DNA from: Burkholderia pyrrocinia
GTDB taxonomy: Bacteria > Pseudomonadota > Gammaproteobacteria > Burkholderiales > Burkholderiaceae
Reading direction: 5' to 3'
Assembly (NCBI RefSeq): GCF_018417535.1
Contig: NZ_CP070978.1
Location: forward strand, 682,001 to 746,000
Length of the DNA: 64,000 nt
Shown here: in pieces, positions 8,038 through 62,341 of the stretch
Layout: the number at the start of each line of letters is the position of its first letter
How positions within the stretch are numbered: the stretch's first letter is position 1
Translations under genes and position numbers: made by a program
Notes under the pieces: model-generated
The model's input: only the letters and a program-made list of their open reading frames with translations
Told to the model about the DNA's origin: nothing
Databases searched by the model: none

Positions 8038-8205
8038 GATCCTGTCTCCCGTGTTCTGTCGACCGGTGTGCATGCACCCCGAATCGTTTTGATGTGGTTC
8101 AATTGCCGACAGCCTAACGGGCGTTATTGTGAGCCGTCTGTCATCGAAACGACAGAGTGCCTTTCGAGTGCCGCGCGTTATCCCTATCCTCGCAAACCCG
8201 CACCC

Positions 8206-8961: not shown

Positions 8962-9189
8962 GCGCGGCGCGATGAGCGAAGCCGTCGCCGGCTCGATGCG
9001 CGCATCCGTTGCCGCAACCGTTCGCGGGTCGCAGCATGCGCATGCCTTCCGTCTGCAGAATCGACCGACCGCGACCGCGCCACAACCTGACAGTTCCGCC
9101 AGTTTCGCGACAGTAACCCGTTCCACGCCGACGCCTATCATTCGGGTTCCCTTCACCGACGCCTGATCACCGCCTGTCCCGCTGCCTCC

Positions 9190-12438: not shown

Positions 12439-12464
12439 CCTTCGCCTATAGACCCGGTTAATTC

Positions 12465-13694: not shown

Positions 13695-15205
13695 TCGCGA
13701 CGCGCGCCCGCGTGCGGCCCGCTGCGCTCGTCGCCGTCGTGGCGGCAGCCGCCGTCGCCGGCTGCACGGTCGGCCCCGACTACCGGCGCCCGGCCGTCGA
13801 TACGCCGGCCGCATGGCGACTCGACCCGGCCGACGCGTACTGGCACCCGGCCGCGCCGGCCCGTGCGCCGCTCGATCCGGCGTGGTGGACCGCGTTCGGC
13901 GATCCGCAGCTCGATGCGCTCGAAACCGACGCGCTGCGCAACAACCAGAACCTGAAGGTCGTCGCCGCGCGCTACGACCAGGCGAAGGCAACGCTCGCAT
14001 CGGTCGCGTCCGCGCAGTATCCGGCCGTCGGCCTGAACGCGAGCGGCCAGCGCTTCAAGATCTCCGCCGACCGGCCGCGGACCAACTACGCGACGCAAAA
14101 CGCATCGACGGTGCAGAACGACATCCAGGTCGGTGCGAGCGTCAGCTACGAACTCGACCTGTTCGGCCGCGTGCGGCGCAGCGTCGAATCCGCGCAGGCG
14201 AGCACCGAGCAGGCGCACGACGATTTCGCGAACGCGCGCCTCGTGCTGACCGCCGATCTCGCATCGAGCTATTTCGCGCTGCGCGAACTCGACACCGAGA
14301 TCGACGTCGTCAAGCGCTCGATCGACCTGCAGCAAAAGGCGCTCGACTACGTGAACGCGCGCCACGAACTCGGCGCGGTATCGGGCCTCGACCTGCTGCA
14401 GCAGCGCGCACAGCTCGACGCGACGCGCACGCAGTTGCAGTTGCTGATCCAGCAGCGCACGCAGGTCGAAACCGCGATCGCGACGCTGGTCGGCACGCCG
14501 GCCCCCGAGTTCTCGCTGCCGCCGCGCGTGGTGCCGATCAACGCGCCCGCGCTGCCGACCGGCATGCCGAGCGACCTGCTGCAGCGGCGCCCCGACGTCG
14601 CGTCGGCCGAGCGCGCGATGGCCGCCGCGAACGCGCAGATCGGCGTCGCGCGCGCCGCGTATTTCCCGCGCATCACGCTGTCGCCGGACATCGGCTGGGA
14701 TGCGACGCGCTTCGCGGGCCTGTTCACCGTGCCGGCGCTGCTGTGGTCGGTCGGCGCGTCGGTCAGCCAGCCGCTGTTCGAAGGCGGCAAGCTGAAGGCC
14801 GGCGTCGATTTCGCGCAGGCCGGTTATGCCGCCGCGCAGGCCAGCTACCGGCAGACCGTGCTCACTGCATTCCAGGAGGTGCAAAATGCGGTGACGGGCC
14901 TGTCGGTGCTGGCCGACGCCGCGCAGCAGGCATCGGCGGCCGTCGACGATGCGCGCAAGCTCGTGTCGCTCGCGCAGGATCGCTACGCGGGCGGCCTGAC
15001 ACCATTCATCGACGTACTGACGGCCCAGCAGCAACTGCTGACGAGCGAGCGCCAGGCCGTGCAGATCCAGGGCCAGCGCGCGACGCTCGTCGTCTTTCTC
15101 GCGAAGGCGCTCGGCGGCGGCTGGGACGGCGGCGCGACGAACGGCCCCGCGCCGTCCGACGTCGCGGCGGCCGGTCCGCAGCGCACCGCGGGCGTCGACC
15201 CTTAA
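13691..15205 (+). CDS. RND outer-membrane factor lipoprotein (NodT/OprM-like)
   Basis: 504 residues from a GTG at 13691 that overlaps the adaptor stop (GTGA). The signal ends in VAAAAVAGC, a lipobox, followed by TVGPDYRRPAVDTPAAW, the typical start of NodT-family outer-membrane channels. Two homologous OEP halves follow, with the usual HDDFANARLVLTADLASSYFALR and TVLTAFQEVQNAVTGL helices. It trimerises to form the exit duct of the tripartite pump. Translational coupling to the adaptor supports fixed stoichiometry. The response regulator gene starts 22 bases later. Confidence 0.94.
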   Translation: MIATRARVRPAALVAVVAAAAVAGCTVGPDYRRPAVDTPAAWRLDPADAYWHPAAPARAPLDPAWWTAFGDPQLDALETDALRNNQNLKVVAARYDQAKATLASVASAQYPAVGLNASGQRFKISADRPRTNYATQNASTVQNDIQVGASVSYELDLFGRVRRSVESAQASTEQAHDDFANARLVLTADLASSYFALRELDTEIDVVKRSIDLQQKALDYVNARHELGAVSGLDLLQQRAQLDATRTQLQLLIQQRTQVETAIATLVGTPAPEFSLPPRVVPINAPALPTGMPSDLLQRRPDVASAERAMAAANAQIGVARAAYFPRITLSPDIGWDATRFAGLFTVPALLWSVGASVSQPLFEGGKLKAGVDFAQAGYAAAQASYRQTVLTAFQEVQNAVTGLSVLADAAQQASAAVDDARKLVSLAQDRYAGGLTPFIDVLTAQQQLLTSERQAVQIQGQRATLVVFLAKALGGGWDGGATNGPAPSDVAAAGPQRTAGVDP

Positions 15206-49246: not shown

Positions 49247-50872
49247 TCAGATCACGCTGAAGTGGTGCGTACCGTCGCGCTTCAACTGGTCGACCAGCCC
49301 GTATTCCCAGTCGAGATACGCCTGCATCGCGGCAGCCGCGTTGTCGGTGCCTTCGTACGGGCGCCGGTAGCGGTCGACGCGCGGTGACGCGAGCCGCGTC
49401 TCGCCGCTTTCGAGCGGCAGCCCGGCATCGATCCAGGCGGCCGTGCCGCCGGTCACCACCGAGATCTCGGCCGACGCCGGCAGCAGCGCGCGCGCGTCGT
49501 CCGCCGCGAACCGCGCGAGCAGGCTCGATCCGCACGTGAACACGTAGCGCTTCGCGGGCGGGACCGCCGCGAGCGCGTCGCGCAACTGCGCGCGCACGAC
49601 GAACCAGGCGCCCGGAATATGGCGCTTCACGTAATTCGCGCTGGCCGTCACGTCGACGATCGCGAGTTCGCCGGGCGCGGCTTCCTTCAGCCAGCCCGCT
49701 AGCGTCGCAGGCGACACGTCGGCCGCGGGCGGCGTCGCCGGCACGTCGCGCGGCGGCTGGCCGCGCTCGCCGAACGCCGCCGCGCCGGCCGGTTCGACCA
49801 CGCGCACGTCCCAGCCCATCTGTGCGAGCCACGACGCGGTCATGTCCGCGCGCACGCCGTCGTCGTCGGCGAGCACGATCCGCGCGCCGCGCACGGCCGC
49901 GTGATGGTCGGTCTCCTGCACGAGCTGGCCGCCCGGCGCGCTCAGGAAGCCCGGCAGATGGCCGGCCTCGTATTCCTCCGGCGTGCGCACGTCGAAGCGG
50001 TACAGCGTGCGGCCCGGCTCGTCGAGCGCGGCGATGCCTGCGAGCGCGATGCGCGGCACGCCGGCGCGTTCGGCCACCGCGCGCGCAGCCTGGCGCGCGT
50101 CGGCGCGCTGCGTCGCGTCGATGTCGTCCGGAAAGCGGCGCGCCGCGCCGTGCTCCAGCGTCTGGCCGGCGAGCGTCCAGCCGATCGTGCCGTTGCGCAG
50201 TGCCGCGACCGGGTTCGGCAGCCCCGCGTTGACGAGCGACTGCGTGCCGATGATGCTGCGCGTGCGGCCCGCGCAGTTGACGACCACCTGCGTGTGCGGA
50301 TTCGGCGCGAGCGCGCGCACGCGCAGCACGAGTTCCGCGCCCGGCACGCTCGTCGAGGTCGGGATGTTCATCGTCTGGTATTCGTCGAAACGGCGCGCGT
50401 CGACGATCACGACGTCGGCCTTCGCATCGATCAGCGCCTGCACTTCCTGCGCGGACAGCGACGGCGTATGCCGCTCCGCCTCGACCCATTCGCCGAACGA
50501 CTTGCTCGGCACGTTCACGTCGATGAACAGTTCGCCGCCCGCGGCCAGCCAGCCCGCGAGGCCGCCGTCGAGCAGCCGCACGTCGGTATAGCCGAGTTGC
50601 GCGAGCTTCGCGGCCGCGCGCGGCGCGAGATCCTCGCCGCCCGCTTCGCCGAACACGACGATCGGCGTGTCGCGGCGCGGAATCCGCGTCCACGCGTCGA
50701 GTTCGAGCTTCGACAGCGGAAAGTTGGCGGCCCACAGCGGGTGGCCCTGCGCGTACGGATCTTCCTCGCGTACGTCGATCAGCGCGATCTCGTCGCGGGC
50801 AAGCAGGCGCGCGCGCACGTCCTGGTACGACGCGGCGGAAAAGCGGGAAGTGGAATCGGCGGATTGCGTCAC
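49247..50872 (-). CDS. four-module rhodanese-like sulfurtransferase
   Basis: 541 residues from a GTG at 50872. Four rhodanese modules in tandem can be recognised by their repeated ...LIDVREEDPYAQGH, VDARRFDEYQTMN, YRFDVRTPEEYEAGH and VDVTASANYVKRH entry segments. Modules 2 and 4 have catalytic cysteines (Cys200 in VVNCAGRTRS; Cys447 in VFTCGSSLLAR); modules 1 and 3 lack them (FGEAGGE, ADDDGVR). Rhodaneses carry a sulfane sulfur on the Cys. It is downstream of, and on the same strand as, the cysteine/thiol dioxygenase gene, so the two should process sulfur from the same substrate. No signal peptide is seen, so cytoplasmic. Confidence 0.88.
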   Translation of the reverse strand: MTQSADSTSRFSAASYQDVRARLLARDEIALIDVREEDPYAQGHPLWAANFPLSKLELDAWTRIPRRDTPIVVFGEAGGEDLAPRAAAKLAQLGYTDVRLLDGGLAGWLAAGGELFIDVNVPSKSFGEWVEAERHTPSLSAQEVQALIDAKADVVIVDARRFDEYQTMNIPTSTSVPGAELVLRVRALAPNPHTQVVVNCAGRTRSIIGTQSLVNAGLPNPVAALRNGTIGWTLAGQTLEHGAARRFPDDIDATQRADARQAARAVAERAGVPRIALAGIAALDEPGRTLYRFDVRTPEEYEAGHLPGFLSAPGGQLVQETDHHAAVRGARIVLADDDGVRADMTASWLAQMGWDVRVVEPAGAAAFGERGQPPRDVPATPPAADVSPATLAGWLKEAAPGELAIVDVTASANYVKRHIPGAWFVVRAQLRDALAAVPPAKRYVFTCGSSLLARFAADDARALLPASAEISVVTGGTAAWIDAGLPLESGETRLASPRVDRYRRPYEGTDNAAAAMQAYLDWEYGLVDQLKRDGTHHFSVI

Positions 50873-50934
50873 GATGTCTCTGTCTGATTCTGTTGAAGTC
50901 GGTGAAGAAAGCGAAACGGATGAAACCCGGGCCT

Positions 50935-50976: not shown

Positions 50977-51543
50977 TCAGGCGTTCGAATAGCCCGACAC
51001 GAAAGGCTTCACGGTGCCGTCGTCCAGGTACACCGCGCGCTCGACCTTGCCGATGTTCGCGCCGTACACGTGGATGCTGATCGATACCTGGTCGTCGAAT
51101 GCGTTGGTCACGCGATGGACGTCGCCGATGCGCGGCGACACGGCCTCGATCTCGCCCGGCTGCAACCGCACGGCTTCGCCGGACGGCACGGGCCGGCCCG
51201 CTTGGTCGAACCGGTACGGCTGCGAGAACTCGCCGCCGCGCAGCATCCCGATCAGCCCCCACACCGTGTGGTTGTGGATCGGCGTCGTCTGGCCGGGCCC
51301 CCACACGAAGCTGACGACCGAGAACCGCTCGTCCGGATCGAGATACAGCAGGTACTGCCGATAGCGCACGGGATCGGGCTGGGCGAACGCGTCGGGCAAC
51401 CAGTCGTCGTGTGCGACGAGCGCAGCGAGCAGCGCGCCACCCTCGTCGAGGATGCGCGCCTCGTTCGCGCCGGACGCGAGCAGCGCGCCCAGACCGTCGA
51501 CGAACGGCCACAGCGGCGTCTGCTGCAACGAAAGCGTACTCAT
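50977..51543 (-). CDS. cysteine dioxygenase-family thiol dioxygenase (cupin)
   Basis: 188 residues from the ATG at 51543. Iron ligands: His90, His92 (TPIHNHTVWGLIGMLRGGE) and His143 (GDVHRVTN); His158/Tyr160 (SIHVYGA) complete the catalytic triad of the CDO fold. The enzyme oxidises a thiol (cysteine or 3-mercaptopropionate) to a sulfinate with O2. It lacks residues that would decide cysteine versus 3-mercaptopropionate with confidence, although the proximity of a rhodanese is typical of bacterial mdo/cdo operons. The divergent LysR gene starts 75 bases away; GAATATGATG is repeated in the gap. Confidence 0.9.
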   Translation of the reverse strand: MSTLSLQQTPLWPFVDGLGALLASGANEARILDEGGALLAALVAHDDWLPDAFAQPDPVRYRQYLLYLDPDERFSVVSFVWGPGQTTPIHNHTVWGLIGMLRGGEFSQPYRFDQAGRPVPSGEAVRLQPGEIEAVSPRIGDVHRVTNAFDDQVSISIHVYGANIGKVERAVYLDDGTVKPFVSGYSNA

Positions 51544-51617: not shown

Positions 51618-52535
51618 ATGAAAATTAGCGATATCGACGCTTTTGCAGCAGTCGTCCGCTGCCAGACCCTGAGCCAGGCCGCGGCCGAGCTCGGGATGAC
51701 GCAGCCCGCGATCACGCGGCGCGTCCAGAATCTCGAGGAAGCGCTCGGCGTGATCCTGCTCGATCGCAACACGAAGCCGCCGCGCCCGACCGATATCGGC
51801 CGGCAGGTCGTCGAGCAGTGTCGCGCGATCCAGCGCGAAGTCGATGCGCTGCGCGAACTGACGGCCGGCCAGCAGCCGCCCGCCGGCGAATTCCGGATCG
51901 GGCTCACGCAGGGGCTCGGCGAACTGATGCTGCCCGCGCTCATCGCCGAACTCGCCGCGCAGTGGCCCGCGCTCGCGACGCAGGTCACGACCGCATGGGG
52001 CGGCATGCTCGTCGAGCGCGTCGCACGCCGCGAACTCGACGCGGCGCTCGTGTTCCTCGCGCGCGAGATGGTGCTGCCGGCGCAGGTCGAAGGCGCTCGG
52101 CTGCTGGCCACGCGGCTCGTCGCGGTCGGCCGCAAGGGCGACTGGCCGCGCCGCAGCTACCGGCTCGCCGATTGCCACGCGCGCGGCTGGGTGCTCAATC
52201 CCGACGGTTGCGGCTTTCGCGCGGGCCTGCGGCGCGCGCTCGACGCGCAGGGCCTGCCGATGCCGGTCACGCTCGACACCTACGGCCGCGACCTGCAACT
52301 GCAGAGCGTCGCGAACGGCTTCGGCATCGGGCTGATGCCGCTGCCGCTCGTCGAAGGCAGCCCGCTGCGCGACGCGCTCGAGATCGTGCCGCTCGCCGAT
52401 TTCAAGCCGCAGATCGATCTGTGGCTGCTGCGCCGGCACGATGCGGCCCGCTTCGACGCGCCGCTCGCGGCCATCGCCGCGCATGCGCGCACGGCGTTCG
52501 CGTTGCCCGAACAGACGCACGGCAAGGCTGCGTGA
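51618..52535 (+). CDS. LysR-family regulator (CysB/Cbl-like) of thiol metabolism
   Basis: 305 residues from the ATG at 51618. HTH (IDAFAAVVRCQTLSQAAAELGMTQPAITRRVQNLEEALGVILLDRNTKP) is complete; the effector domain includes GEFRIGLTQGLGELMLPALIAELAAQWP and FGIGLMPLPLVEG. It is divergent from the thiol dioxygenase with 74 bases between. Sulfur-metabolism control is inferred from the neighbours; sequence similarity to CysB is only at the family level. Confidence 0.9.
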   Translation: MKISDIDAFAAVVRCQTLSQAAAELGMTQPAITRRVQNLEEALGVILLDRNTKPPRPTDIGRQVVEQCRAIQREVDALRELTAGQQPPAGEFRIGLTQGLGELMLPALIAELAAQWPALATQVTTAWGGMLVERVARRELDAALVFLAREMVLPAQVEGARLLATRLVAVGRKGDWPRRSYRLADCHARGWVLNPDGCGFRAGLRRALDAQGLPMPVTLDTYGRDLQLQSVANGFGIGLMPLPLVEGSPLRDALEIVPLADFKPQIDLWLLRRHDAARFDAPLAAIAAHARTAFALPEQTHGKAA

Positions 52536-52596: not shown

Positions 52597-53943
52597 TCAC
52601 GCATCGTTTCGATCGCGTTCGACCTCGTTGCGTGACGCCCCGCCCGCCTCCGCTGTCGTTTCGCCCCGCCCCGCCGCTTCGAGCGCCGCACGCCCGGCCG
52701 CCACCGCGATCGCGTCGTCCTGCGGCGTATGCACGCGGCTGCACAGCACGTCGCGATAGTGGCGTTCGAGCGGATTGCCGCGGCTCAGCCCGTGGTTGCC
52801 CGACAGCTTCAGCGCCTGCTCGACCGCGCGGATCGCGTGCTCGGTCACGGTCCGCTTGACGAGGCCGCTCGTCGTGACCGACGGCGCGTTGCCGGCGTCG
52901 GTCCGCGCAATGTGATCGTCGAGCAGCACGCGGTTCGCATGCAGCCAGCCCTCGATTTCACCGACCGCCTCCTGCACGCGCGGCAGCGTCGCGAGCGGCG
53001 CGCCGAGCCCGCTCGGCGCACGCGTCGTCGCGAACCCGACCAGCCAGTCGCGCGATGCGCGCGCCACCGCGTCGTACAGGCTGCCGAGCAGCGCGACCAT
53101 CCACGCCTGCTGGTCGGCTTGCGCGTCGGCATCCGCATGGGTCGCGGCCGACACGGCCCACGCGTGCGGCGCACGCACGTCGACCGCATGGTCGGCCGGC
53201 AGCCGCACGTCGTCGAATACGACCTCGTGACTGCCCGATGCGCGCAGGCCGAGGTGATTCCAGCTTTCGATCACGCGGATGCGGTCGCCGTCCGCGTCGC
53301 GGTCGCGCGGCACGAGAAACACGCCGACGCGCGGCTCCGGTTCATCGGTACGCGCCCACACGGCCAGCCAGCGCAACGCCGGAATCCCGGTGCTGTACAG
53401 CTTGTGGCCGGACAGCCGCCAGCCGTCGCCGTCGCGGCGCGCAACAGTGTCAGGCAGGCCGCCGCGCGACGGCGAACCGAGCGCCGGCTCGACGCGCAGC
53501 GCGTTGATCAGCGCGCCGTGCGCGACCGCGCTGTCGAACACCGCACGCCGCACCGGTGCAGGCCAGCGGTTGTCGGCACGGCCGAGCGCGCGATGCTGCA
53601 GATACGTCATCGTCAGCACCAGCGCGGTCGCCGGGTCGGCACGCGCGACCGCGGCGACGATCCGGCTCGCCCGCGCAAGCGTCGCGCCCGCACCACCATG
53701 CTCGCGCGGCACGACCTGCGCGATCAGCCCCGCGCGATGCAGCCGCGCGAAGTTCTCGTGCGGAAAGCGGCCGTCGACGTCGTTGCGAGCGGCGTCGGCG
53801 GCGAGCTCGGGTGCGAGGCGGTCGAGCAGCGCGGCGACGCGCGCGTCTTCTGCATCGTCGGCATCGTCGGCGTCGTCGGCAGGCAGAAGGCGCAGCGAAG
53901 GCTGCTGCGGCGACTGTGAGGAAGCGGCAAGGCTGGCGGACAT
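52597..53943 (-). CDS. acyl-CoA dehydrogenase-like flavoprotein (SfnB/DszC family)
   Basis: 448 residues. The acyl-CoA dehydrogenase fold is clear: N-terminal helices (FPHENFARLHRAGLIAQVVPREHGGAG), middle barrel (GWRLSGHKLYSTGIPALRWLAVWART, VIESWNHLGLRASGSHEVVFDDVRLP) and the C-terminal helices (EQALKLSGNHGLSRGNPLERHYRDVLCSRVHTP). The catalytic Glu of true acyl-CoA dehydrogenases is not obvious, as in SfnB and DszC, which are flavin monooxygenases of sulfones and thiophenes. A DDADDADDAEDA stretch after residue 23 is coded by a 9-bp repeat. It is divergent from the LLM monooxygenase at 54228, so the two are likely coregulated for organosulfur use. Confidence 0.85.
   Translation of the reverse strand: MSASLAASSQSPQQPSLRLLPADDADDADDAEDARVAALLDRLAPELAADAARNDVDGRFPHENFARLHRAGLIAQVVPREHGGAGATLARASRIVAAVARADPATALVLTMTYLQHRALGRADNRWPAPVRRAVFDSAVAHGALINALRVEPALGSPSRGGLPDTVARRDGDGWRLSGHKLYSTGIPALRWLAVWARTDEPEPRVGVFLVPRDRDADGDRIRVIESWNHLGLRASGSHEVVFDDVRLPADHAVDVRAPHAWAVSAATHADADAQADQQAWMVALLGSLYDAVARASRDWLVGFATTRAPSGLGAPLATLPRVQEAVGEIEGWLHANRVLLDDHIARTDAGNAPSVTTSGLVKRTVTEHAIRAVEQALKLSGNHGLSRGNPLERHYRDVLCSRVHTPQDDAIAVAAGRAALEAAGRGETTAEAGGASRNEVERDRNDA
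53852..53878. repeat. 9-bp tandem repeat in the flavoprotein gene
   Basis: GCATCGTCG twice, then GCGTCGTCG, coding the Asp-Asp-Ala repeats near residue 25 on the minus strand. Copy-number change would add or remove whole Asp-Asp-Ala units without shifting the frame. Confidence 0.75.
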
Positions 53944-54112
53944 CGAGACGGATTCCCTGGGTAGTGCAAACGCGGCAACGCCGGCAATAGCGATGATCGA
54001 TCGTCACGCGGCGCGGGTTCGCGTGAAGTCGGCGATGCGTAACGTAACGCGCACCCGCCCGATCGTTCGTGAGCCCACAGCGTATGCGCAGCGCCCATCC
54101 ACCCAAACCATG

Positions 54113-54131
54113 CAAATCTGATATTCAAATC
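54113..54131. promoter_or_regulatory. CAAATC direct repeat in the AcdH-like/LLM divergent region
   Basis: CAAATC at 54113 and 54126 (13-base spacing) lies in the only AT-rich part (54110-54160) of the 284-base divergent gap. The region should hold one or both promoters; the repeat is a weak regulatory candidate. Confidence 0.35.
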
Positions 54132-54227
54132 GGGATTGATTATTTCCATTCCGCATGATCGCGGCGTTAACCTGCGCTCCATTCCTGCCCGGCCGTGCGC
54201 CGGGCCGTCCCTGCACCGGAGACCCAG

Positions 54228-55313
54228 ATGAGCGTCGAATTCATCGGCATGATCCAGAGCCAGAAGCAGTCGGAAATCCACCCGGCGTCCGGCCCCGTGG
54301 TCGATCCCGACTATGTGCGCGACTTCGCGCGCGCCCACGAAACGGCCGGCTTCGACCGGATCCTCGTGCCGCATCACTCGACCGGCCCGTCGGCGACGCT
54401 GACGATCGCGTTCGCGGCGGCCGCGACCGAGCGCATCCATTTCATGCTCGCGCATCGCCCGGGCTTCACCGCACCGACGCTCGCCGCGCGGCAGATCGCG
54501 ACGCTCGACCAGTTCAGCCGCGGCCGGCTCGCCGTGCACTTCATCTCCGGCGGCTCGGACAGCGAGCAGCAACGCGACGGCGATTTCCTCGACCACGATG
54601 CGCGCTATGCGCGTACCGACGAATACCTCGGCATCCTGCGGCGGATCTGGACCGAAGCGCAGCCGTTCGATCACGACGGCGCGCACTACCGGTTCAAGCA
54701 GGGCTTCTCTGAAGTGAAGCCGTTCCAGCAGCCGCATGTGCCGATCTACTTCGGCGGCGCATCGGAAGCCGCGCTCGCGGTGGCCGGCAAGCACGCGGAC
54801 GTCTATGCGCTGTGGGGCGAATCGCTCGACCAGGTGCGCGACCTGACGACGCGCGTGCGCGCCGAAGCCGCGCAGCACGGCCGGCAGGTGCGTTTCTCCG
54901 TATCGTTCCGGCCGATCCTCGCCGCGACCGAGGACGAAGCGTGGGCGCGCGCGTATCGCATCCTCGACGAAACGCGCCGGCTGCGCGAAGCGGCCGGCCT
55001 CGGCGCCGGCGGCCCGCAGCAGAGCGAAGGTGCGCGCCGCCTGCTCGCCGCGGCCGAACGCGGCACGCGCGTCGACAAGCGGCTGTGGACCGAGATCGCG
55101 AAGCTCACCGGCGCGCGCTCGAACTCGACGGCGCTCGTCGGCACACCCGAACAGGTCGCCGACGCGCTGCTCGACTACTACGACCTCGGCGTGACGACGT
55201 TCCTGATCCGCGGCTTCGATCCGCTGGAAGACGCGATCGACTACGGCCGCGAACTGATTCCGCGCGTGCGCAGCGCCGTCGCCGCACGCGACGCGGCGCT
55301 GCGCGCCGCATGA
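54228..55313 (+). CDS. LLM-class flavin monooxygenase (SsuD/alkanesulfonate monooxygenase-like)
   Basis: 361 residues. Bacterial luciferase-type TIM barrel: SVEFIGMIQSQKQSEIHP, GFDRILVPHHSTGPSATLTIAFAAAATERIHFMLAHRPGF, QIATLDQFSRGRLAVHFISGG, PHVPIYFGGASEAALAVAGKHADVYALWGE. This arrangement matches alkanesulfonate monooxygenase, which uses reduced FMN and O2 to release sulfite from sulfonates. No NADH:FMN reductase gene adjoins. It is the first gene of an eight-kilobase run with an aldolase-like gene, an ABC transporter, a cytochrome and a second binding protein. Confidence 0.92.
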   Translation: MSVEFIGMIQSQKQSEIHPASGPVVDPDYVRDFARAHETAGFDRILVPHHSTGPSATLTIAFAAAATERIHFMLAHRPGFTAPTLAARQIATLDQFSRGRLAVHFISGGSDSEQQRDGDFLDHDARYARTDEYLGILRRIWTEAQPFDHDGAHYRFKQGFSEVKPFQQPHVPIYFGGASEAALAVAGKHADVYALWGESLDQVRDLTTRVRAEAAQHGRQVRFSVSFRPILAATEDEAWARAYRILDETRRLREAAGLGAGGPQQSEGARRLLAAAERGTRVDKRLWTEIAKLTGARSNSTALVGTPEQVADALLDYYDLGVTTFLIRGFDPLEDAIDYGRELIPRVRSAVAARDAALRAA

Positions 55314-55333
55314 CGCCAACGGAGCCGCACGCC

Positions 55334-56173
55334 ATGTCCGCCGTCCTCGCCACGCCCGTTCGCACCGCATCGGGCCTCGTGCTCGCCGAAGCGCCGCGCC
55401 AGCATTTCTGGTTCGACCCGCCCGCGCCGCGCATCGACGTCGCCGCCGAACGCCGCCACCGGCAGGAGCGGCTCGCGGCCGCGTTCCGCCTGTTCGCGCG
55501 CTTCGGGTTCGCGTCGGGGCTCGCCGGCCACATCACCGCGCGCGATCCGGAGTTGCCCGACCACTTCTGGGTGAATCCGCTCGGCGTGCATTTCTCGCAG
55601 ATCAAGGTGTCCGACCTGCTGCTCGTCAACGCGCGCGGCGAAACCGCGATCGGCACGCGGCCGCTGAACAAGGCCGCGTTCGCGATCCATGCGGCGATCC
55701 ACGAAGCCCATCCGCACATCGTCGCCGCCGCGCATACGCATTCGACCTACGGCAAGGCGTGGTCGACGCTCGGCCGCCCGCTCGATCCGCTGACGCAGGA
55801 CGCGTGCGTGTTCTACGAGGATCACGCGCTGTTCGACGACTTCACGGGGATGGTCGTCGACACCAGCGAAGGCGCGCGGATCGCACACGCGCTCGCGAAG
55901 CCGGACGGCAGCACGCACAAGGGCGCGATCCTGAAGAACCACGGGATCCTGACGGCCGGCCCGACGGTCGAGGCCGCCGCGTGGTGGTACATCGCGCTCG
56001 ACAACGCCGCGCACACGCAGTTGCTGGCCGAAGCGGCCGGCACGCCGCAGCCGATCGATCATGCGACCGCGCGCCACACGCACGGCCAGATCGGCGGCCC
56101 CGACGGTGCGCTGCATGCGTTCGGCAGCCTGTTCGCGCGCGTCGTCGCCGACGAACCCGACCTGCTCGACTGA
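55334..56173 (+). CDS. class II aldolase/adducin-family protein
   Basis: 279 residues from the ATG at 55334 (GGAG site). An in-frame ATG at 55310 overlaps the LLM stop and would add 8 residues. The fold is recognisable from LAAAFRLFARFGFASGLAGHITARDPELPDHFWVNPLGVHFSQIKVSDL, NKAAFAIHAAIHEAHPHIVAAAHTHSTYGKAWSTLGRPLDPLTQDACVFYEDHAL (metal His cluster) and AILKNHGILTAGPTVEAAAWWYIALDNAA. Family members are fuculose- or ribulose-phosphate aldolases and epimerases, or sulfolactaldehyde-type aldolases. An aldehyde or C-C cleavage step on the monooxygenase product would fit. Confidence 0.9.
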   Translation: MSAVLATPVRTASGLVLAEAPRQHFWFDPPAPRIDVAAERRHRQERLAAAFRLFARFGFASGLAGHITARDPELPDHFWVNPLGVHFSQIKVSDLLLVNARGETAIGTRPLNKAAFAIHAAIHEAHPHIVAAAHTHSTYGKAWSTLGRPLDPLTQDACVFYEDHALFDDFTGMVVDTSEGARIAHALAKPDGSTHKGAILKNHGILTAGPTVEAAAWWYIALDNAAHTQLLAEAAGTPQPIDHATARHTHGQIGGPDGALHAFGSLFARVVADEPDLLD

Positions 56174-56203
56174 GCGCCTATCCGCAAGCCCGGAGACCAC
56201 ACA

Positions 56204-57238
56204 ATGACCCAACCCACCGCACCGGCGCCGGCCGACGCGCACGACGACAAACGCCGCCGGCTGCTGCGCGCGGCCGGCGCCGCCGCGCTTGCCGCGCCCG
56301 CGATCACGCTCGGCCGCAACGCATGGTCCGCGCCGCCGCTGAAGAAGCTCACGTTCGCGTGGAACCAGAACGCGTTCTGCCTGACGCCGATCGTCGTCGC
56401 GCAGGAACGCGGCTTCTTCGAGAAGAACGGCCTGAAGGTCGAGCTGATCAACTACAGCGGATCGACCGACCAGTTGCTCGAATCGATCGCGACCGGCAAG
56501 GCCGATGCGGCGGTCGGGATGATCCACCGCTGGCTGAAGCCGCTCGAAGCCGGCTTCGACGTGAAGATCATCGGCAGCTCGCACGGCGGCTGCGTGCGGC
56601 TGCTCGGCGCGAAGGCGGCCGGCGTCACGACGCTGCAGGCGCTGAAGGGCAAGACGGTCGGCGTCAGCGATCTCGCCGCGCCCGGCAAGCATTTCTTCTC
56701 GATCCTCCTCGCGAAGAACGGGATCGATCCCGAGCGCGACATCACGTGGCGACAGTATCCGGCCGACCTGCTCGGCGTCGCGGTCGACAAGGGCGAGATC
56801 CATGCGATCGCCGACGGCGACCCGAATCTCTTCCTGCTCGAGAAGCGCAGCAACGGCGCGTATACCGAACTGGCGACGAACCTGTCCGGCGAATACGCGC
56901 GCAAGGTGTGCTGCGTGATCGGCGCGCGCGGCGATCTCGTGCGCAACGACCGGCCGTCGGCCGCCGCGCTCGCGCGCTCGATCGTGCAGGCCACCGAGTA
57001 CACGCACGACAACCCGAACGAGGCCGCGAAGGTGTTCGCGAAGTATTCGCCGAAGATCAGCCCCGAGGATCTGCGCAAGCTCTACGCGACGCTCACCTAT
57101 ACACATCACCCGACCAACGTCGACCTGCAGCAGGAAATCGCGTTCTATGCGGACGATTTCCGCCGCATCAGCGTGCTGAAGAAAAGCACGGACCCGCAGC
57201 GCTTCGCGCAGCAGGTCTATGCGAACGTGCTGGGGTGA
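56204..57238 (+). CDS. ABC transporter substrate-binding protein (nitrate/sulfonate/taurine type), Tat-like signal
   Basis: 344 residues. The N-terminus carries a twin-arginine-type stretch KRRRLLRAAGAAALAAPAITLGRNAWSA, with cleavage near residue 45. The mature part (LTFAWNQNAFCLTPIVVAQERGFFEKNGLKVELINYSGSTDQLLESIATGKADAAVG) is typical of SsuA/TauA/ThiY-type binding proteins (NMT1 family). The permease gene follows after 4 bases. The ligand is not known; the sulfonate class is suggested by the LLM gene. Confidence 0.9.
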   Translation: MTQPTAPAPADAHDDKRRRLLRAAGAAALAAPAITLGRNAWSAPPLKKLTFAWNQNAFCLTPIVVAQERGFFEKNGLKVELINYSGSTDQLLESIATGKADAAVGMIHRWLKPLEAGFDVKIIGSSHGGCVRLLGAKAAGVTTLQALKGKTVGVSDLAAPGKHFFSILLAKNGIDPERDITWRQYPADLLGVAVDKGEIHAIADGDPNLFLLEKRSNGAYTELATNLSGEYARKVCCVIGARGDLVRNDRPSAAALARSIVQATEYTHDNPNEAAKVFAKYSPKISPEDLRKLYATLTYTHHPTNVDLQQEIAFYADDFRRISVLKKSTDPQRFAQQVYANVLG

Positions 57239-57242
57239 CGCG

Positions 57243-58331
57243 ATGTCGACGATCGAACACGCTCCCACCGCAGCACCGGCCGGCGGCAGCGCCAGTGCCT
57301 CCACCGCATCCTTGCGCGTCGCCTGCACGGCCTGCGAAGCTACGCTGGCCGCCGACGCCCGCCGCGCCCGGACCTGGCCGACCGGCATCGCCGCTGCGCT
57401 CGCATGGGCCGCGCTCGGCGCGCTCACGCAACTGTGGCCGAACCGCGTCGTCGGCTTCAGCGACTGGGCTTACACGGACACGTTCGGCACGGCCGCGTGG
57501 TCGATCGCCGCGCTGCTGCTCGCCGCCGCGACGCTCGGCCATCTCGTCCCCGCCACACGCTCGCGGCTCGCGCGCGTGCGTCCGGCCGGCCCGTGGCTCG
57601 TCGCGCTGCCGCTCGTGCTCGCCGCATGGGAAATCGTCACCGCGAAAACCGGCTGGCTGCCGACGCCGTTCTTCGCGCCGCCGCAGGCGCTGATCGAGGT
57701 TTATGTCGACGACTGGCCGCGCCTGCTCGGCAGCGCCGGCAACACGCTGAAGCTGCTCGCGCTCGGGTTTGTTTACGGCGTCGCGGTCGGCTTCGCGGTG
57801 GGCGTGTCGATCGGCTGGTCGCGCCGGATCGGCTACTGGGTGCATCCGGTGCTGCGCGTGCTCGGCCCCGTGCCGGCCACCGCACTGCTGCCGCTCACGT
57901 TCTACTTCTTCCCGTCGAGCTATTCGGCCGCCGCGTTCCTGATCGCGCTGTCGACCGGCTTCCCGGTCGCCGTGCTGACGTGGTCGGGCGTCGCGAGCGT
58001 CAACCGGCAGTACTACGACGTCGCGCGCACGCTCGGCGCGAACGCGCGCTTCCTCGTGCTGCGCGTCGCGATTCCGGCCGCGCTGCCGCACGTGTTCGTC
58101 GGCATCTTCATGGGGCTGAGCGCGTCGTTCACGGTGCTGGTCGTCGCCGAGATGATGGGCGTCAAGTCGGGGCTCGGCTGGTACCTGAGCTGGGCGCAGG
58201 GCTGGGCATCGTACGTGAACATGTATGCGGCGCTGATCGTGATGGCGCTGCTGTTTTCCGGGCTGATCGCGCTGCTGTTCGCGGTGCGCGACCGCGTGCT
58301 CGCGTGGCAGAAGGGAACCGTCAAATGGTAA
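57243..58331 (+). CDS. ABC transporter permease (SsuC/TauC type) with long N-terminal extension
   Basis: 362 residues, about 100 longer than a usual SsuC. The C-terminal half has the classic binding-protein-dependent permease features (LLGSAGNTLKLLALGFVYGVAVGFAVGVSIGWSRR, VHPVLRVLGPVPATALLPLTFYFFP, VFVGIFMGLSASFTVLVVAEMMG), including the cytoplasmic EAA loop (ARTLGANARFLVLRVAIPAALPHV). The N-terminal extension adds two more helices (near residues 42-60 and 82-105). The stop overlaps the ATPase start by 7 bases. Confidence 0.92.
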   Translation: MSTIEHAPTAAPAGGSASASTASLRVACTACEATLAADARRARTWPTGIAAALAWAALGALTQLWPNRVVGFSDWAYTDTFGTAAWSIAALLLAAATLGHLVPATRSRLARVRPAGPWLVALPLVLAAWEIVTAKTGWLPTPFFAPPQALIEVYVDDWPRLLGSAGNTLKLLALGFVYGVAVGFAVGVSIGWSRRIGYWVHPVLRVLGPVPATALLPLTFYFFPSSYSAAAFLIALSTGFPVAVLTWSGVASVNRQYYDVARTLGANARFLVLRVAIPAALPHVFVGIFMGLSASFTVLVVAEMMGVKSGLGWYLSWAQGWASYVNMYAALIVMALLFSGLIALLFAVRDRVLAWQKGTVKW

Positions 58332-59140
58332 GCGCCGCCGTACTCGAACCGTCCGTTGCAGCTTCGTCCACCGTCACGGCACCGCGCGGTGCGCGCATCG
58401 ACATCCGCCGCGTGAGCCATGCATTCGACGGCCCCGGCGGCCCGCTGCCGGTGCTCGACGACGTCACGCTGTCGGTCGCGGCCGGCGAATTCGTCGCGCT
58501 GCTCGGCCCGAGCGGCTGCGGGAAATCGACGCTGCTGCGCCTCGTCGCGGGCCTCGACGCCGCGCGGCAAGGCACGATCGCGCAGGACGGCGTGCCGATC
58601 GAACGACCCGATCCGTCGCGCATCGTCGTGTTCCAGGACCCGACGCTGTACCCGTGGCGACGCGTGCGCGCGAACGTCGCGCTCGGCCTCGAAGCGCGCG
58701 GCGTGGCGCGGGTCGCGCAGCATCGCGTCGACGATGCGCTCGCGCGCGTCGGGCTGCAGGAATTCTCGAATGTGTTTCCGCATCAACTGTCCGGCGGGAT
58801 GGCGCAGCGGGTCGCGCTCGCCCGCGCGCTCGTCAACGATCCGCGCCTGCTGATTCTCGACGAGCCGCTCGGCAAGCTCGATTCGCTGACGCGACTCACG
58901 ATGCAGGCCGAGTTGACCACGCTGTGGCAACGCGACGGGTTCTCCGCGCTGCTCGTCACGCACGATGTCGAGGAAGCGCTGTTTCTCGCGCAGCGCGTGA
59001 TCGTGTTCGGGCCGCGTCCGGCACGGATCGTCGCCGAATTGCACGTCGACCTGCCCTACCCGCGCCATCGCGGCGACCCGCGCCTAGCCGAACTGCGCCA
59101 CGACGCGCTGCGGCATCTCGGGCTCGATGCGAGCTGGTAG
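58325..59140 (+). CDS. ABC transporter ATPase (SsuB/TauB type)
   Basis: 271 residues. Walker A GPSGCGKST (61-69), signature LSGGMAQRVALARAL, Walker B LLILDEPLGKLD, and the switch His in LLVTHDVEEALFLAQRV. The family is that of nitrate/sulfonate/taurine importers. It pairs with the permease (7-base overlap) and binding protein upstream. The cytochrome gene starts 50 bases later. Confidence 0.94.
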   Translation: MVSAAVLEPSVAASSTVTAPRGARIDIRRVSHAFDGPGGPLPVLDDVTLSVAAGEFVALLGPSGCGKSTLLRLVAGLDAARQGTIAQDGVPIERPDPSRIVVFQDPTLYPWRRVRANVALGLEARGVARVAQHRVDDALARVGLQEFSNVFPHQLSGGMAQRVALARALVNDPRLLILDEPLGKLDSLTRLTMQAELTTLWQRDGFSALLVTHDVEEALFLAQRVIVFGPRPARIVAELHVDLPYPRHRGDPRLAELRHDALRHLGLDASW

Positions 59141-59190
59141 ATGCAGGGTGCCGTTCGACGATGGGCCGCGGCGCGGCGGGAACGCGGCCG

Positions 59191-60390
59191 ATGAACGCGC
59201 CGCCGCTCTCCGACTGGACGCTCGCATTCCTGCAACTGCTGTATCGCGCGCAAATCGCGTTGACGCGCATGCTGCATGCGGTCGGCCTGACCGGCGACGC
59301 CGACGGTCAGGCCGCGTGGCCGTGGACGTACCGGATCGCGCTCGAGACGCTGCGCATCGACGCGGGCCTCACGCGGCAACTCGCGTTCGCCTGTGCGGTG
59401 ACGGCGCTGGCCGTGGCGCTCGGCGTCGTCGCGCTCGCTTCGCGCAAATGGCGCTTCGCATCCGCGATCGCCGCGATCGCCGTCGCATGGTTCGCACCAT
59501 GGCCGCCGTCGTCGCTATGGCTCGCGCCCGCGGTGCCGACGAGTTTCCAGCGCGATCCCGCGCCGTTTTCGGTGTCGAACGTGATGCACGGCGCGCATCT
59601 GTATGCGCAACACTGCACCGCCTGCCACGGCGCGGACGGCCGTGGCGAAGGGCCGCTCGCGGCCACGCTCGCGCACTGGCCGCCGACCTTTGCCGGCGCG
59701 CTGCTTGCGCGTCGCCTCGACGGCGAACTGTTCTGGCATGTGCGCCACGGCACGCACGACGAACACGGCGCGCCGACGATGCCCGGCTTCGCCGCGACGT
59801 TCGGCCCGCAGGACACGTGGGCCGTGCTCGACTACCTGAAAGCGCTCGCCGCCGGCAGCGGCGCGCAGGCGGAGGGCGCGTGGCCCGTGCCCGTCCCGCT
59901 GCCGGCGCTCGACGTACGCTGCGGCGGCGCCGCGCCTCAACCGCTCGATCGCTGGCGCGAAGGCCAGCGCGTGCGCATCGTCGCACTCGCGCCAGGCGCC
60001 GCGCCGCCGCCGGAAGATGCGCGCTGGCAAACCTTGCTCGTCACCGCACGGGGCGCGTCCGTGCCGCCGGCAACCGGCACGCGTGCGAACTGCGTCGCGT
60101 CGACGCCCGATGCGTGGCTTGCGTTCGCGACGATTGCCGGCGTCGCACCCGACGCGCTCGGCGGTACGCAACTGCTCGCCGATCGGCGCGGCTGGCTGCG
60201 GGCGCGCGCGTTGCCGGGCAGCGCCGGCTGGTCGGATGCCGACCTGCTGTGCCGTTCCGATACCGCTGCACGGCCAGCCGCGCCCGCCGTGCCGGCCGCG
60301 CCCGCCGCGAACGGCGACCCGCTGACCGCGCTGCTGCTGCGCGTCGACGCGGAACCCGTACGCGACGTGCAGGCCGGGCTCCCGCACTGA
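59191..60390 (+). CDS. membrane-anchored c-type cytochrome of the sulfonate-type cluster
   Basis: 399 residues from the ATG at 59191 (an ATG at 59161 adds a Gly/Arg-rich leader). Two membrane helices (residues about 62-84 and 90-110) are followed by a cytochrome c domain with heme motif CTACH (142-146) and axial Met197 (PTMPGF). The remaining 190 residues are an unassigned periplasmic domain. Cytochrome c genes are unusual inside SsuABC/TauABC-type operons. It could accept electrons from a sulfite- or aldehyde-oxidising dehydrogenase, but none was seen in the window. It lies between the ATPase and a second binding protein, in the same orientation. Confidence 0.85.
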   Translation: MNAPPLSDWTLAFLQLLYRAQIALTRMLHAVGLTGDADGQAAWPWTYRIALETLRIDAGLTRQLAFACAVTALAVALGVVALASRKWRFASAIAAIAVAWFAPWPPSSLWLAPAVPTSFQRDPAPFSVSNVMHGAHLYAQHCTACHGADGRGEGPLAATLAHWPPTFAGALLARRLDGELFWHVRHGTHDEHGAPTMPGFAATFGPQDTWAVLDYLKALAAGSGAQAEGAWPVPVPLPALDVRCGGAAPQPLDRWREGQRVRIVALAPGAAPPPEDARWQTLLVTARGASVPPATGTRANCVASTPDAWLAFATIAGVAPDALGGTQLLADRRGWLRARALPGSAGWSDADLLCRSDTAARPAAPAVPAAPAANGDPLTALLLRVDAEPVRDVQAGLPH

Positions 60391-60427
60391 ATTCCCGAAC
60401 CCTTCTTTCGATCGACCCAACTTCACG

Positions 60428-61381
60428 ATGAATTCGACCCGACGCCATTTCCTCGCACAAGCGAGCGCCCTCGCCACGATCGCCGCGGCCCCGACCGCGC
60501 TGCGCGCGCAATCGGGCGCACGGCCGCTGCTGCGCGCCGGCGACCAGAAAGGCGGGTTGCGCGCGCTGCTCGAAGCGGCCGGCGAACTGAACGGCCTCGC
60601 GTACGACATCGCGTGGACCGAGTTCCCGGCCGCCGCACCGCTCGCCGAAGCGCTGAACGCGGCCGCCGTCGATTGCGGGCCGATCGGCGATGCGCCGGTG
60701 ATCTTCGCGCTCGCGTCGGGCGCACGCATCAAGGTGATCGGCGCGAACCGTTCCGATCCGTACGGCACGGCCGTGCTCGTGCAGCCCGACGCGGCGCTGA
60801 AAGGCGCGGCCGACCTGAAGGGCAAGCGCATCGGCACCACACGCGGCTCGATCGGCCATTTCGTCACGTTGAAGGCGCTCGACGCGGCCGGCCTGCCGCC
60901 CGATGCCGTGTCGTTCCGCTTCCTGCCGCCGGCCGACACGATGCTCGCGCTCGCGACCGGATCGATCGACGCATGGGCGACGTGGGAGCCCTATACCGCG
61001 CTCGCGGAAACGAGCGGCCGCGCGCGCGTGCTCGTCAACGGCCGCGGCCTGTGGTCGGGCCTCAGCTACATCGCGGCGACCGACACCGCGATCGCGTCGA
61101 AGCGCGACGTGCTGCACGATTTCCTGCGGCGCGTCGTGCGCGCGCAGACATGGTCGTACCGGCATGTCGACGCATATTCCGCGGCGCTCGCGCGCATCAT
61201 CGGCATTCCGCCGGCGGCCGCGAAGCTGCAGTTCGAGCGCCGCAACACGCGCTGGCTGCCGATCGACGCGTCGGTGATCGCCGAACAGCAGCGCACGGCC
61301 GACTTCTACCTGAAGGCCGGGCTGCTGCGCCAGCCGCTCGACGTGCGCACGACGTTCGACCCGGGCTTCCCGCTCGCATGA
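60428..61381 (+). CDS. second periplasmic substrate-binding protein (SsuA-like), Tat-like signal
   Basis: 317 residues. STRRHFLAQASALATIAAAPTALRA is a twin-arginine signal. The mature domain (PLLRAGDQKGGLRALLEAAGELNGLAYDIAWTEFPAAAPLAEALNAAAVDCGPIGDAPVIFAL; ATWEPYTALAE) is of the aliphatic-sulfonate binding-protein type. It differs clearly from the binding protein at 56204. It probably uses the same permease/ATPase with another ligand, or acts as a sensor for the cytochrome system. Confidence 0.9.
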   Translation: MNSTRRHFLAQASALATIAAAPTALRAQSGARPLLRAGDQKGGLRALLEAAGELNGLAYDIAWTEFPAAAPLAEALNAAAVDCGPIGDAPVIFALASGARIKVIGANRSDPYGTAVLVQPDAALKGAADLKGKRIGTTRGSIGHFVTLKALDAAGLPPDAVSFRFLPPADTMLALATGSIDAWATWEPYTALAETSGRARVLVNGRGLWSGLSYIAATDTAIASKRDVLHDFLRRVVRAQTWSYRHVDAYSAALARIIGIPPAAAKLQFERRNTRWLPIDASVIAEQQRTADFYLKAGLLRQPLDVRTTFDPGFPLA

Positions 61382-61474: not shown

Positions 61475-62341
61475 ATGCCAGCCATCAGCGAACTTTTCGT
61501 CTACCCGATCAAATCCTGCGCCGGCATCGCGCTGCCGCGCGCGCAACTGCTCGAAACGGGCCTCGCATACGACCGCCACTGGCTGATCACCGATCCCGCC
61601 GGGCAGATGATCACGCAGCGCACACACCCGCGCCTCGCGCTGATCCGCACCGCACTCGACAGCGATGCACTCGTGCTGAACGCGCCGGGCATGCGCGAGA
61701 TTCGCACGCCGCTCGACGGCGACGTGTCGCCCGCCACGCCGAAGATGGCCGCGACCGTCTGGCGCGACACGGTCGACGCGATCGACACGGGTGCCGAAAC
61801 GGCCGCGTGGCTCACCGAATTCCTCGGCATGCCGACGAAGCTCGCGCGCTTCGGGCCTGACGCGCGTCGCGGCTGCAACCGCAAATGGACGGGCGAGATC
61901 GATACGCACACGCAGTTCGCGGACGGCTATCCGCTGCTCGTGATCGGCCAGACGTCGCTCGACGACCTGAATGCGCGGCTCGTCGCGAAAGGCGCGCCGG
62001 CGATCCCGATGAACCGCTTCCGCCCGAACATCGTCGTGTCGGACCTCGATGCATACGAAGAGGATTTCGTCGAACACCTCGACACCGACGGCGCGACGCC
62101 CGTGCGGCTGCGCCTCGTGAAGCCGTGCACGCGCTGCCCGATGCCGACGATCGACCAGGTCACCGGCGCGCCCGACCCTGCATGGCCGCATGAGCCGACC
62201 GACACGATGCAGACCTATCGCGCGAATCCGAACTACGACGATGCGCTGACGTTCGGCATCAACGCGATCGTCGTCGAAGGCGCGGGCGCGTGGCTCGAAA
62301 TCGGGCAGTCGGTCGAAGCGGAGATCGGGTTCGGCGATTGA
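61475..62341 (+). CDS. MOSC domain protein (mARC/YcbX-like)
   Basis: 288 residues. N-terminal beta-barrel MOSC_N (ELFVYPIKSCAGIAL, LAYDRHWLITDPAGQMITQRTHPRLALI) and C-terminal MOSC domain with the Mo-cofactor cysteine in KPCTRCPMPTID (Cys221; Cys218 nearby). YcbX/mARC enzymes reduce N-hydroxylated bases using the molybdenum cofactor. It follows the second binding protein by 93 bases and may have its own promoter. A molybdenum link to a nearby cytochrome is possible but unproven. Convergent with the exported protein gene after 7 bases. Confidence 0.92.
   Translation: MPAISELFVYPIKSCAGIALPRAQLLETGLAYDRHWLITDPAGQMITQRTHPRLALIRTALDSDALVLNAPGMREIRTPLDGDVSPATPKMAATVWRDTVDAIDTGAETAAWLTEFLGMPTKLARFGPDARRGCNRKWTGEIDTHTQFADGYPLLVIGQTSLDDLNARLVAKGAPAIPMNRFRPNIVVSDLDAYEEDFVEHLDTDGATPVRLRLVKPCTRCPMPTIDQVTGAPDPAWPHEPTDTMQTYRANPNYDDALTFGINAIVVEGAGAWLEIGQSVEAEIGFGD

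What the first reader, a model, noticed from the sequence alone, without database searches (positions are those of the whole stretch)
52597..61381. Candidate undescribed organosulfur (or related) oxidation system with its own cytochrome
A compact divergent block joins two flavin enzymes (an SfnB/DszC-like flavoprotein and an SsuD-like LLM monooxygenase), a class II aldolase, a sulfonate-type ABC importer, a membrane-bound c-type cytochrome with a novel C-terminal half, and a second binding protein. Each family is known, but I do not know this combination as a described pathway. Model (inference): import, FMN-dependent C-S cleavage, aldolase processing of the carbon product, and periplasmic oxidation feeding electrons to the cytochrome.
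Basis: partly seen in the sequence, partly recalled or inferred. Interest (0 to 1): 0.8.

Follow-up and report, generated by a model that had tools for sequence, protein, structure and literature searches.

The report
Sulfur-scavenging locus with importer-linked cytochrome
A Burkholderia gene cluster that probably takes up and dismantles a sulfur-containing organic compound carries, locked to its importer, an unstudied membrane cytochrome that appears to stand where related bacteria keep copper-handling proteins.

Summary
Three corrections matter. (1) The set is larger: a 3-mercaptopropionate-dioxygenase-type thiol dioxygenase and a four-domain rhodanese lie just to the left and belong to the neighbourhood. 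(2) The LLM enzyme is not a canonical alkanesulfonate monooxygenase: both sulfonate-binding arginines of MsuD are replaced in 49 of 49 relatives at about 58% identity or more, while this genome's own SsuD keeps them. (3) The cytochrome belongs to the importer: it follows SBP1-permease-ATPase in 34 of 34 loci, including three whose fetched stretch holds no ortholog of the LLM, ACAD, dioxygenase or rhodanese. Among these 34, aldolase and second binding protein occur together in 22. The cytochrome's "novel" C-terminal half is predicted to be thioredoxin-like (TlpA/SCO/peroxiredoxin) without CxxC, with three conserved cysteines and a terminal His. In six alphaproteobacterial loci ordered ACAD-LLM-SBP1-permease-ATPase, the next genes are CopC/CopD-type, preceded by YcnI in five. 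Best reading: a widespread proteobacterial organosulfur-scavenging locus whose Burkholderiales form has an importer-coupled cytochrome doing periplasmic redox, possibly copper, chemistry. Substrate and cytochrome function are undemonstrated.

The parts
49247..50932 (-). multi-domain rhodanese (sulfurtransferase); start approximate
   Evidence: PF00581, 4 stretches; conserved beside the 3MDO gene
50977..51543 (-). 3-mercaptopropionate-dioxygenase-type thiol dioxygenase
   Evidence: best PDB matches 4qma 275 bits and 3uss/4tlf (3-mercaptopropionate dioxygenase) 255 bits; His and S-x-H-x-Y motifs aligned
51618..52535 (+). LysR-type regulator (at this place only in the Burkholderia loci)
   Evidence: PF00126/PF03466
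52597..53943 (-). acyl-CoA-dehydrogenase-superfamily flavoprotein, distantly SfnB/desulfinase-like
54103..54147 (.). conserved AT-rich element in the divergent intergenic region, candidate operator
   Evidence: aligned, with few changes, in 14 of 14 Burkholderia rows; core pattern found once in the genome (this site) with up to 3 mismatches, reversed control 0
54228..55313 (+). LLM flavin monooxygenase of a distinct, non-SsuD-motif subfamily
   Evidence: PF00296; motif W/S/R/T/R
55310..56173 (+). class II aldolase/adducin family protein (PRK06208)
   Evidence: 441 bits, cut-off 255
56204..57238 (+). SBP1, NMT1/THI5-type binding protein of the importer
   Evidence: PF09084; 70% identity or more in exactly the 30 of 120 genomes that have the cytochrome
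57243..58331 (+). ABC importer permease
   Evidence: PF00528
58325..59140 (+). ABC importer ATPase
   Evidence: PF00005; ATG at 58325 read from the sequence
59191..60390 (+). membrane-anchored c-type cytochrome with a degenerate thioredoxin-like C-terminal domain
59578..59847 (+). heme c domain of the cytochrome (CxxCH at residues 142-146, Met197)
   Evidence: 32 of 32 rows
59887..60255 (+). predicted thioredoxin-like domain, no CxxC; Cys244, Cys301, Cys354 conserved
60428..61381 (+). SBP2, SsuA-family binding protein without its own permease
   Evidence: TIGR01728 209.6 bits, cut-off 163.5
61475..62341 (+). MOSC-domain protein; found after SBP2 in the Burkholderia loci only
   Evidence: PF03476/PF03473

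Best explanation
This is an organosulfur-scavenging locus made of two modules. Module A (rhodanese, 3MDO-type thiol dioxygenase, ACAD, LLM, aldolase, SBP2, LysR) oxidises and dismantles a thiol or other sulfur compound in the cytoplasm. The dioxygenase would turn a 3-mercaptopropionate-like thiol into a sulfinate, the two flavoenzymes would oxidise it and cleave carbon from sulfur, the aldolase would process the carbon product, and the rhodanese would handle the released sulfur. Module B (SBP1-permease-ATPase-cytochrome) imports the compound. The cytochrome is an importer partner: membrane-anchored, with a periplasmic His/Met heme c and a thioredoxin/SCO-like domain. It most likely carries out a periplasmic redox step on the substrate, or on a metal bound to it (copper is the best candidate), before or during import, and passes electrons to or from the respiratory chain. 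Shown by computation: gene content, conservation, the two-module structure, loss of the sulfonate-binding arginines, the predicted fold, and the slot shared with YcnI/CopC/CopD. Inferred: substrate class, order of reactions, copper link, membrane topology, direction of electron flow.
Confidence: 0.45

Rival explanations
1. The cytochrome is the electron acceptor of a periplasmic dehydrogenase (for example a molybdenum hydroxylase) that converts the substrate before import; copper is irrelevant.
For: In G314 the gene order is SBP1-PERM-ATP-CYT followed by a [2Fe-2S] protein and a molybdopterin-binding protein. The heme domain is an ordinary class I c domain. A MOSC protein follows in Burkholderia.
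Against: No such dehydrogenase was seen among the one to few downstream genes scanned by Pfam in L052, L053, L056, L057, L064, L069, L095 and L096; a distant one is not excluded. The MOSC gene is restricted to the Burkholderia loci.
Confidence: 0.25
2. One reading: a sulfonate is imported, cleaved by an SsuD-like LLM and oxidised periplasmically with the cytochrome as sink.
For: SBP2 is a clear SsuA-family protein. An xsc gene follows the cytochrome in G026 and in G045 (positions). ssuDCAB lies next to the gene set in a Comamonadaceae plasmid.
Against: MsuD Arg225 and Arg296, each needed for activity of MsuD, are Ser and Thr/Ile in 49 of 49 rows at about 58% identity or more, although arginines sit two to three residues away at both places in 44 of 49. 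xsc is next to the cytochrome in only 2 of the 34 searched genomes that have the cytochrome, and is absent over cut-off from this genome.
Confidence: 0.15
3. The cytochrome is a passenger fixed next to the importer by descent, with no role in its function.
For: It is the fastest-diverging gene of the block (43-55% where SBP1 is 74-89%, in the Burkholderiaceae loci outside this genus).
Against: Adjacency survives down to 41% identity and across families while LLM, aldolase, SBP2, 3MDO and MOSC are absent around it in some loci; heme ligands, three Cys and the terminal His stay conserved.
Confidence: 0.1

Closest known systems
Pseudomonas PA2594-PA2603 region (sulfonate SBP, MsuD-like LLM, 3MDO PA2602, sulfurtransferase PA2603)
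   Same: 3MDO and sulfurtransferase apparently in one transcription unit, LLM and sulfonate-type SBP; PA2594 and PA2598 respond with the sulfur-assimilation genes (passages of PMC12947264 and PMC8466066)
   Different: No cytochrome is mentioned in those passages; that these genes form one cluster is inferred from the locus numbers, and orthology with the window genes was not tested, as no named Pseudomonas chromosome was searched
SsuD/MsuD alkanesulfonate monooxygenases
   Same: LLM family, 207 bits to MsuD 7jv3, Trp195 equivalent kept
   Different: Arg225 to Ser, His227 to Arg, Arg296 to Thr/Ile
3,3'-dithiodipropionate/thiodipropionate pathways (Mdo plus Acd desulfinase)
   Same: A 3MDO-type dioxygenase beside an acyl-CoA-dehydrogenase-superfamily enzyme (compare PMC5373536, PMC6370202, passages)
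   Different: No CoA transferase or ligase identified here; ACAD only 104 bits to the desulfinase model (cut-off 600); extra LLM, rhodanese, importer and cytochrome
YcnI-CopC/CopD copper uptake module
   Same: Occupies the same slot after the ATPase in 6 alphaproteobacterial loci
   Different: No detectable sequence similarity to the cytochrome
SCO/TlpA/peroxiredoxin (thioredoxin-like) proteins
   Same: Predicted fold of cytochrome residues 233-355
   Different: No CxxC or CxxxC; a heme c and membrane anchor are fused in front

Membership tests
alkanesulfonate monooxygenase (SsuD/MsuD) | sulfonate site: Trp195, Arg225, Arg296, RGGA loop (MsuD numbering) | tested here: not met
   Trp kept; Arg225 is Ser and Arg296 is Thr/Ile in 49 of 49 rows at about 58% or more; the own-genome SsuD (L002) keeps the motif; motif taken from PMC8234197
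alkanesulfonate monooxygenase (SsuD/MsuD) | NCBIfam TIGR03565 cut-off 518.2 bits | tested here: not met
   237.3 bits
SfnB / 3-sulfinopropionyl-CoA desulfinase | equivalog cut-offs 430.9 / 600 bits | tested here: not met
   102.3 / 103.7 bits
3-mercaptopropionate dioxygenase | full-length match to characterised 3MDO, His residues and S-x-H-x-Y motif | tested here: met
   255 bits over 179 residues to 3uss, motifs aligned; role of the motif residues recalled
3-mercaptopropionate dioxygenase | activity on 3-mercaptopropionate | not testable with these tools
   needs enzyme assay
class I c-type cytochrome | CxxCH plus distal Met | tested here: met
   Cys142, Cys145, His146 and Met197 in 32 of 32 rows
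SCO/TlpA redox protein | thioredoxin-like fold | tested here: met
   (predicted model; moderate Z, no Foldseek E below 0.001)
SCO/TlpA redox protein | CxxC or CxxxC active site | tested here: not met
   no such pair in the C-terminal domain alignment
CopC/CopD copper importer | CopC/CopD domains or detectable homology | tested here: not met
   no Pfam hit beyond cytochrome c; best BLAST alignment 8 residues, E 1.3; hhalign probability 0.2
sulfate-starvation regulon | induction by sulfate limitation | not testable with these tools
   only indirect: PA2594/PA2598 in PMC8466066

The most novel reading that the evidence does not exclude
An ABC importer with its own c-type cytochrome forms a new kind of uptake machine for a metal-binding organosulfur compound (a thiol-copper chelate). 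The cytochrome's heme and cysteine-bearing SCO-like domain would reduce or strip copper at the membrane so that ligand and metal can enter, a job done by YcnI-CopC/CopD in alphaproteobacteria, and the enzymes of the block would then recycle the sulfur ligand.
Probability: 0.17. Interest if true: 0.8.

Novelty: new variant of a known kind. Interest (0 to 1): 0.5.

Why it matters
An ABC importer whose operon carries, in every cytochrome-positive locus seen, a membrane cytochrome with a thioredoxin-like domain is an unusual pairing, and it offers a direct test of whether some binding-protein importers need periplasmic redox chemistry. The matching slot filled by copper-type proteins in another class suggests a link between organosulfur scavenging and copper that can be tested in laboratory strains. 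It also separates a widespread LLM subfamily from the alkanesulfonate monooxygenases it resembles by profile score.

Tried and rejected
Sulfoacetaldehyde link (Xsc-Pta-TauE downstream of the cytochrome in G026): rejected as general. Of 37 genomes searched, 34 of them with the cytochrome, xsc is over cut-off in 16 (all among the 34) and next to the cytochrome only in G026 and G045; this genome has none over cut-off.

Homology between the cytochrome and CopD: none found by BLAST or by profile comparison with alignment A1. An earlier script run printed only part of its BLAST output and an hhalign run in it returned nothing usable.

A standalone version of the C-terminal domain: 14 hits, named cytochrome c or hypothetical protein or unnamed, none with a Pfam domain other than cytochrome c; most are about 100 aa fragments, the longest two without a heme domain call are 228 and 249 aa. 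PHROGs: no hit.

Whole-model VIA-align covered only the heme domain, so the C-terminal domain was predicted alone. The 50 rows shown are thioredoxin-superfamily proteins (by title and recall) and cannot single out SCO, TlpA or peroxiredoxin.

Promoter/terminator scan: no sigma-70-like sites and 5 terminator-like sites against 6.8 expected, so operon limits are inferred from gaps.

Sulfur-regulon motif: the local AT-rich core is unique in the genome at up to 3 mismatches, and local alignment to the 16 kb around ssuD gave only a 13-base and a gapped 20-base match; no shared box was found.

Literature: no title describing this gene combination was seen in the lists. Two lists were capped: 25 of 17,235 papers and 15 of 92. 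Only titles, the openings of abstracts and the passages cited were seen. Tchesnokov 2015 (PMC4591825) is not held.

Errors: the cytochrome was first given in a wrong frame (59178) (protein 7), which spent one protein search and the single genome-contig scan; those results are used only for the two loci they fetched (L009, L010). One search aligned sequences of mismatched length and is not used. One search stopped with a script error after printing the column counts; its regular expression missed L084 and L094, whose cysteines and tails were printed. Several ORFs given to the family scans were picked by ORF lists or a codon-bias script and may have wrong starts. The LLM rows are those with over 80% coverage in the loci fetched by then.

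Full report
WHAT IS THERE. The window lies in an 8.54 Mb, three-contig genome. Cytochrome matches place it near the Burkholderia cepacia complex. On the plus strand runs LLM (54228-55313), class II aldolase (55310-56173), SBP1 (56204-57238), permease (57243-58331), ATPase (58325-59140), cytochrome (59191-60390), SBP2 (60428-61381) and a MOSC protein (61475-62341). Gaps run from overlap to 50 bp as far as SBP2, then 93 bp. On the minus strand lie ACAD (52597-53943), a thiol dioxygenase (50977-51543) and a four-domain rhodanese (49247-50932), with a plus-strand LysR gene between ACAD and the dioxygenase.

THE MISSED HALF. The protein at 50977-51543 matches 3-mercaptopropionate dioxygenases of known structure over nearly its whole length (4qma 275 bits, 3uss 255 bits; cysteine dioxygenase type 1 chains only about 19-25 bits). 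With the rhodanese it is part of the neighbourhood. Of 120 Burkholderiaceae genomes, 56 have any cytochrome match and 30 have one well beyond the heme domain (one of them split by a contig end). Among these 30 the dioxygenase lies within the fetched stretch beside the LLM in 28. It is missing from the stretches of G115 and G079, and in G112 it sits beside an LLM about 13 kb away from the cytochrome. Of nine further genomes with an LLM at 70% or more but no cytochrome, eight LLM loci were fetched: 3MDO in six, rhodanese in eight. Named records repeat the set with variations: Paraburkholderia sprentiae, where LLM-aldolase-dioxygenase-rhodanese run in one row, a Comamonadaceae plasmid, Azospirillum ramasamyi, without the aldolase in the stretch, and Klebsiella pneumoniae, likewise without it.

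TWO MODULES. In all 30 loci the permease and ATPase directly precede the cytochrome, and SBP1 at 70% or more occurs in exactly the same 30 of 120 genomes; 12 more genomes have SBP1 at 36-54% without it. At E up to 1e-30 a phylum-wide sample gives 3 of 299 and an order-wide sample 8 of 399 genomes with the cytochrome, this genome included in both. Four of these hits lie outside the Burkholderiaceae. G738 has the enzyme set (rhodanese, dioxygenase, ACAD, LLM, aldolase, SBP2). G314, G764 and G780 have SBP1-PERM-ATP-CYT with no ortholog of LLM, ACAD, dioxygenase or rhodanese in stretches of 14-19 kb; G780 has one distant LLM-superfamily match at 25% identity. So the cytochrome follows the importer in 34 of 34 loci. 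Among these 34, aldolase and SBP2 were found together in 22 (10 in this genus, 6 and 5 in two other genera, plus G738) and in none of the rest at that position; in L066 the contig ends inside the cytochrome, so SBP2 could not be seen there, and G112 has an SBP2-like gene further away. In loci without the cytochrome the two are not so tightly linked (SBP2 without aldolase in L085 and L091). Downstream of the cytochrome the genes differ: a [2Fe-2S] protein and a molybdopterin-binding protein in G314, where an O-acetylhomoserine-sulfhydrylase-type gene is divergent from SBP1; a carbonic-anhydrase-like protein in G780; sulfoacetaldehyde acetyltransferase, phosphate acetyltransferase and TauE in G026.

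THE LLM IS NOT SsuD. PMC8234197 (passages) defines the sulfonate site of MsuD: Trp195, Arg225, Arg296 and Ala/Ser299, and reports no measurable sulfite from R225A, R296A and W195A. In an alignment of LLM rows from loci fetched by then, the 43 at 72% identity or more and the six printed at 58-60% all keep the Trp. All 49 have Ser for Arg225, Arg for His227 and Thr or Ile for Arg296. The genome's own SsuD (L002, 37%) keeps the motif residues. In 44 of 49 rows arginines sit at the His227 position and three residues after the lost Arg296, so an anionic substrate held in a shifted position is not excluded. Score cut-offs agree: 237 bits against 518 for SsuD.

THE SLOT. Thirteen alphaproteobacterial records were opened, picked by hand from lists of 79 LLM and 79 SBP1 records. 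In six of them, Paracoccus denitrificans PD1222, Rhizobium daejeonense, Pararhizobium gei, Paracoccus yeei, Haematobacter massiliensis and Microvirga lotononidis, the order is ACAD-LLM-SBP1-PERM-ATP, and the next genes are DUF1775/YcnI and a CopC/CopD-type protein (CopC without YcnI in P. yeei). Pfam confirms the domains for the first four; the last two rest on record annotation or tblastn. In the Klebsiella record the ATPase lies at the end of the record, so its slot could not be seen. Passages of PMC12362106 describe YcnI and CopC as copper(II)-binding and CopD as a proposed copper importer. The cytochrome shows no sequence similarity to CopD, so any equivalence would be functional. This is the main ground for the copper idea. 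It remains an inference, because four of the six loci share a larger gene run and may reflect few independent events.

REGULATION. The intergenic region between ACAD and LLM holds a conserved AT-rich element in 14 of 14 Burkholderia rows. The core pattern occurs once in the genome with up to three mismatches, against none for the reversed control. A local regulator, probably the LysR gene, is the simplest reading. Evidence for sulfur control is only indirect: PA2594 and PA2598 are lowered with cys genes in a P. aeruginosa mutant (PMC8466066 passages), and their orthology with the window genes was not tested.

VERDICT. What the cytochrome does (substrate redox, copper redox, or electron acceptor of a dehydrogenase) is open. 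I rate it a new variant of a known kind, because organosulfur scavenging loci of this family are widespread while the importer-cytochrome pairing is the unusual part.

Noticed in passing
L084 (G314) 6765-10941: SBP1-PERM-ATP-CYT is followed by a [2Fe-2S] protein and a molybdopterin-binding (xanthine-dehydrogenase-type) protein, suggesting a cytochrome-linked molybdenum hydroxylase.
   Followed up: partly
L096 (G780) 8783-9370: A beta-carbonic-anhydrase-like protein (Pro_CA) follows the cytochrome; this family also contains COS and CS2 hydrolases (recalled).
   Followed up: no
L098 (Paracoccus denitrificans PD1222 plasmid 1) 10830-23569: Long run ACAD-LLM-SBP-PERM-ATP-YcnI-CopD-LLM-SBP-PERM-ATP-cupin-rhodanese-HupE/UreJ joining organosulfur and metal-transport genes.
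   Followed up: partly
window 61475-62341: MOSC-domain protein 93 bp after SBP2, found at this place only in the Burkholderia loci.
   Followed up: partly
window 56204 and 60428: Both binding proteins begin with twin-arginine-like N-termini (RRRLLRAAG and RRHFLAQ), so both may be Tat substrates (sequence).
   Followed up: no
L056 (G026) 10450-14362: Xsc, phosphate acetyltransferase and TauE directly downstream of the cytochrome; an xsc gene also follows it in G045, otherwise not adjacent.
   Followed up: yes
G083: The one genome among the 11 of this genus (this genome included) that lacks the cytochrome, SBP1 and the close LLM at the thresholds used.
   Followed up: no
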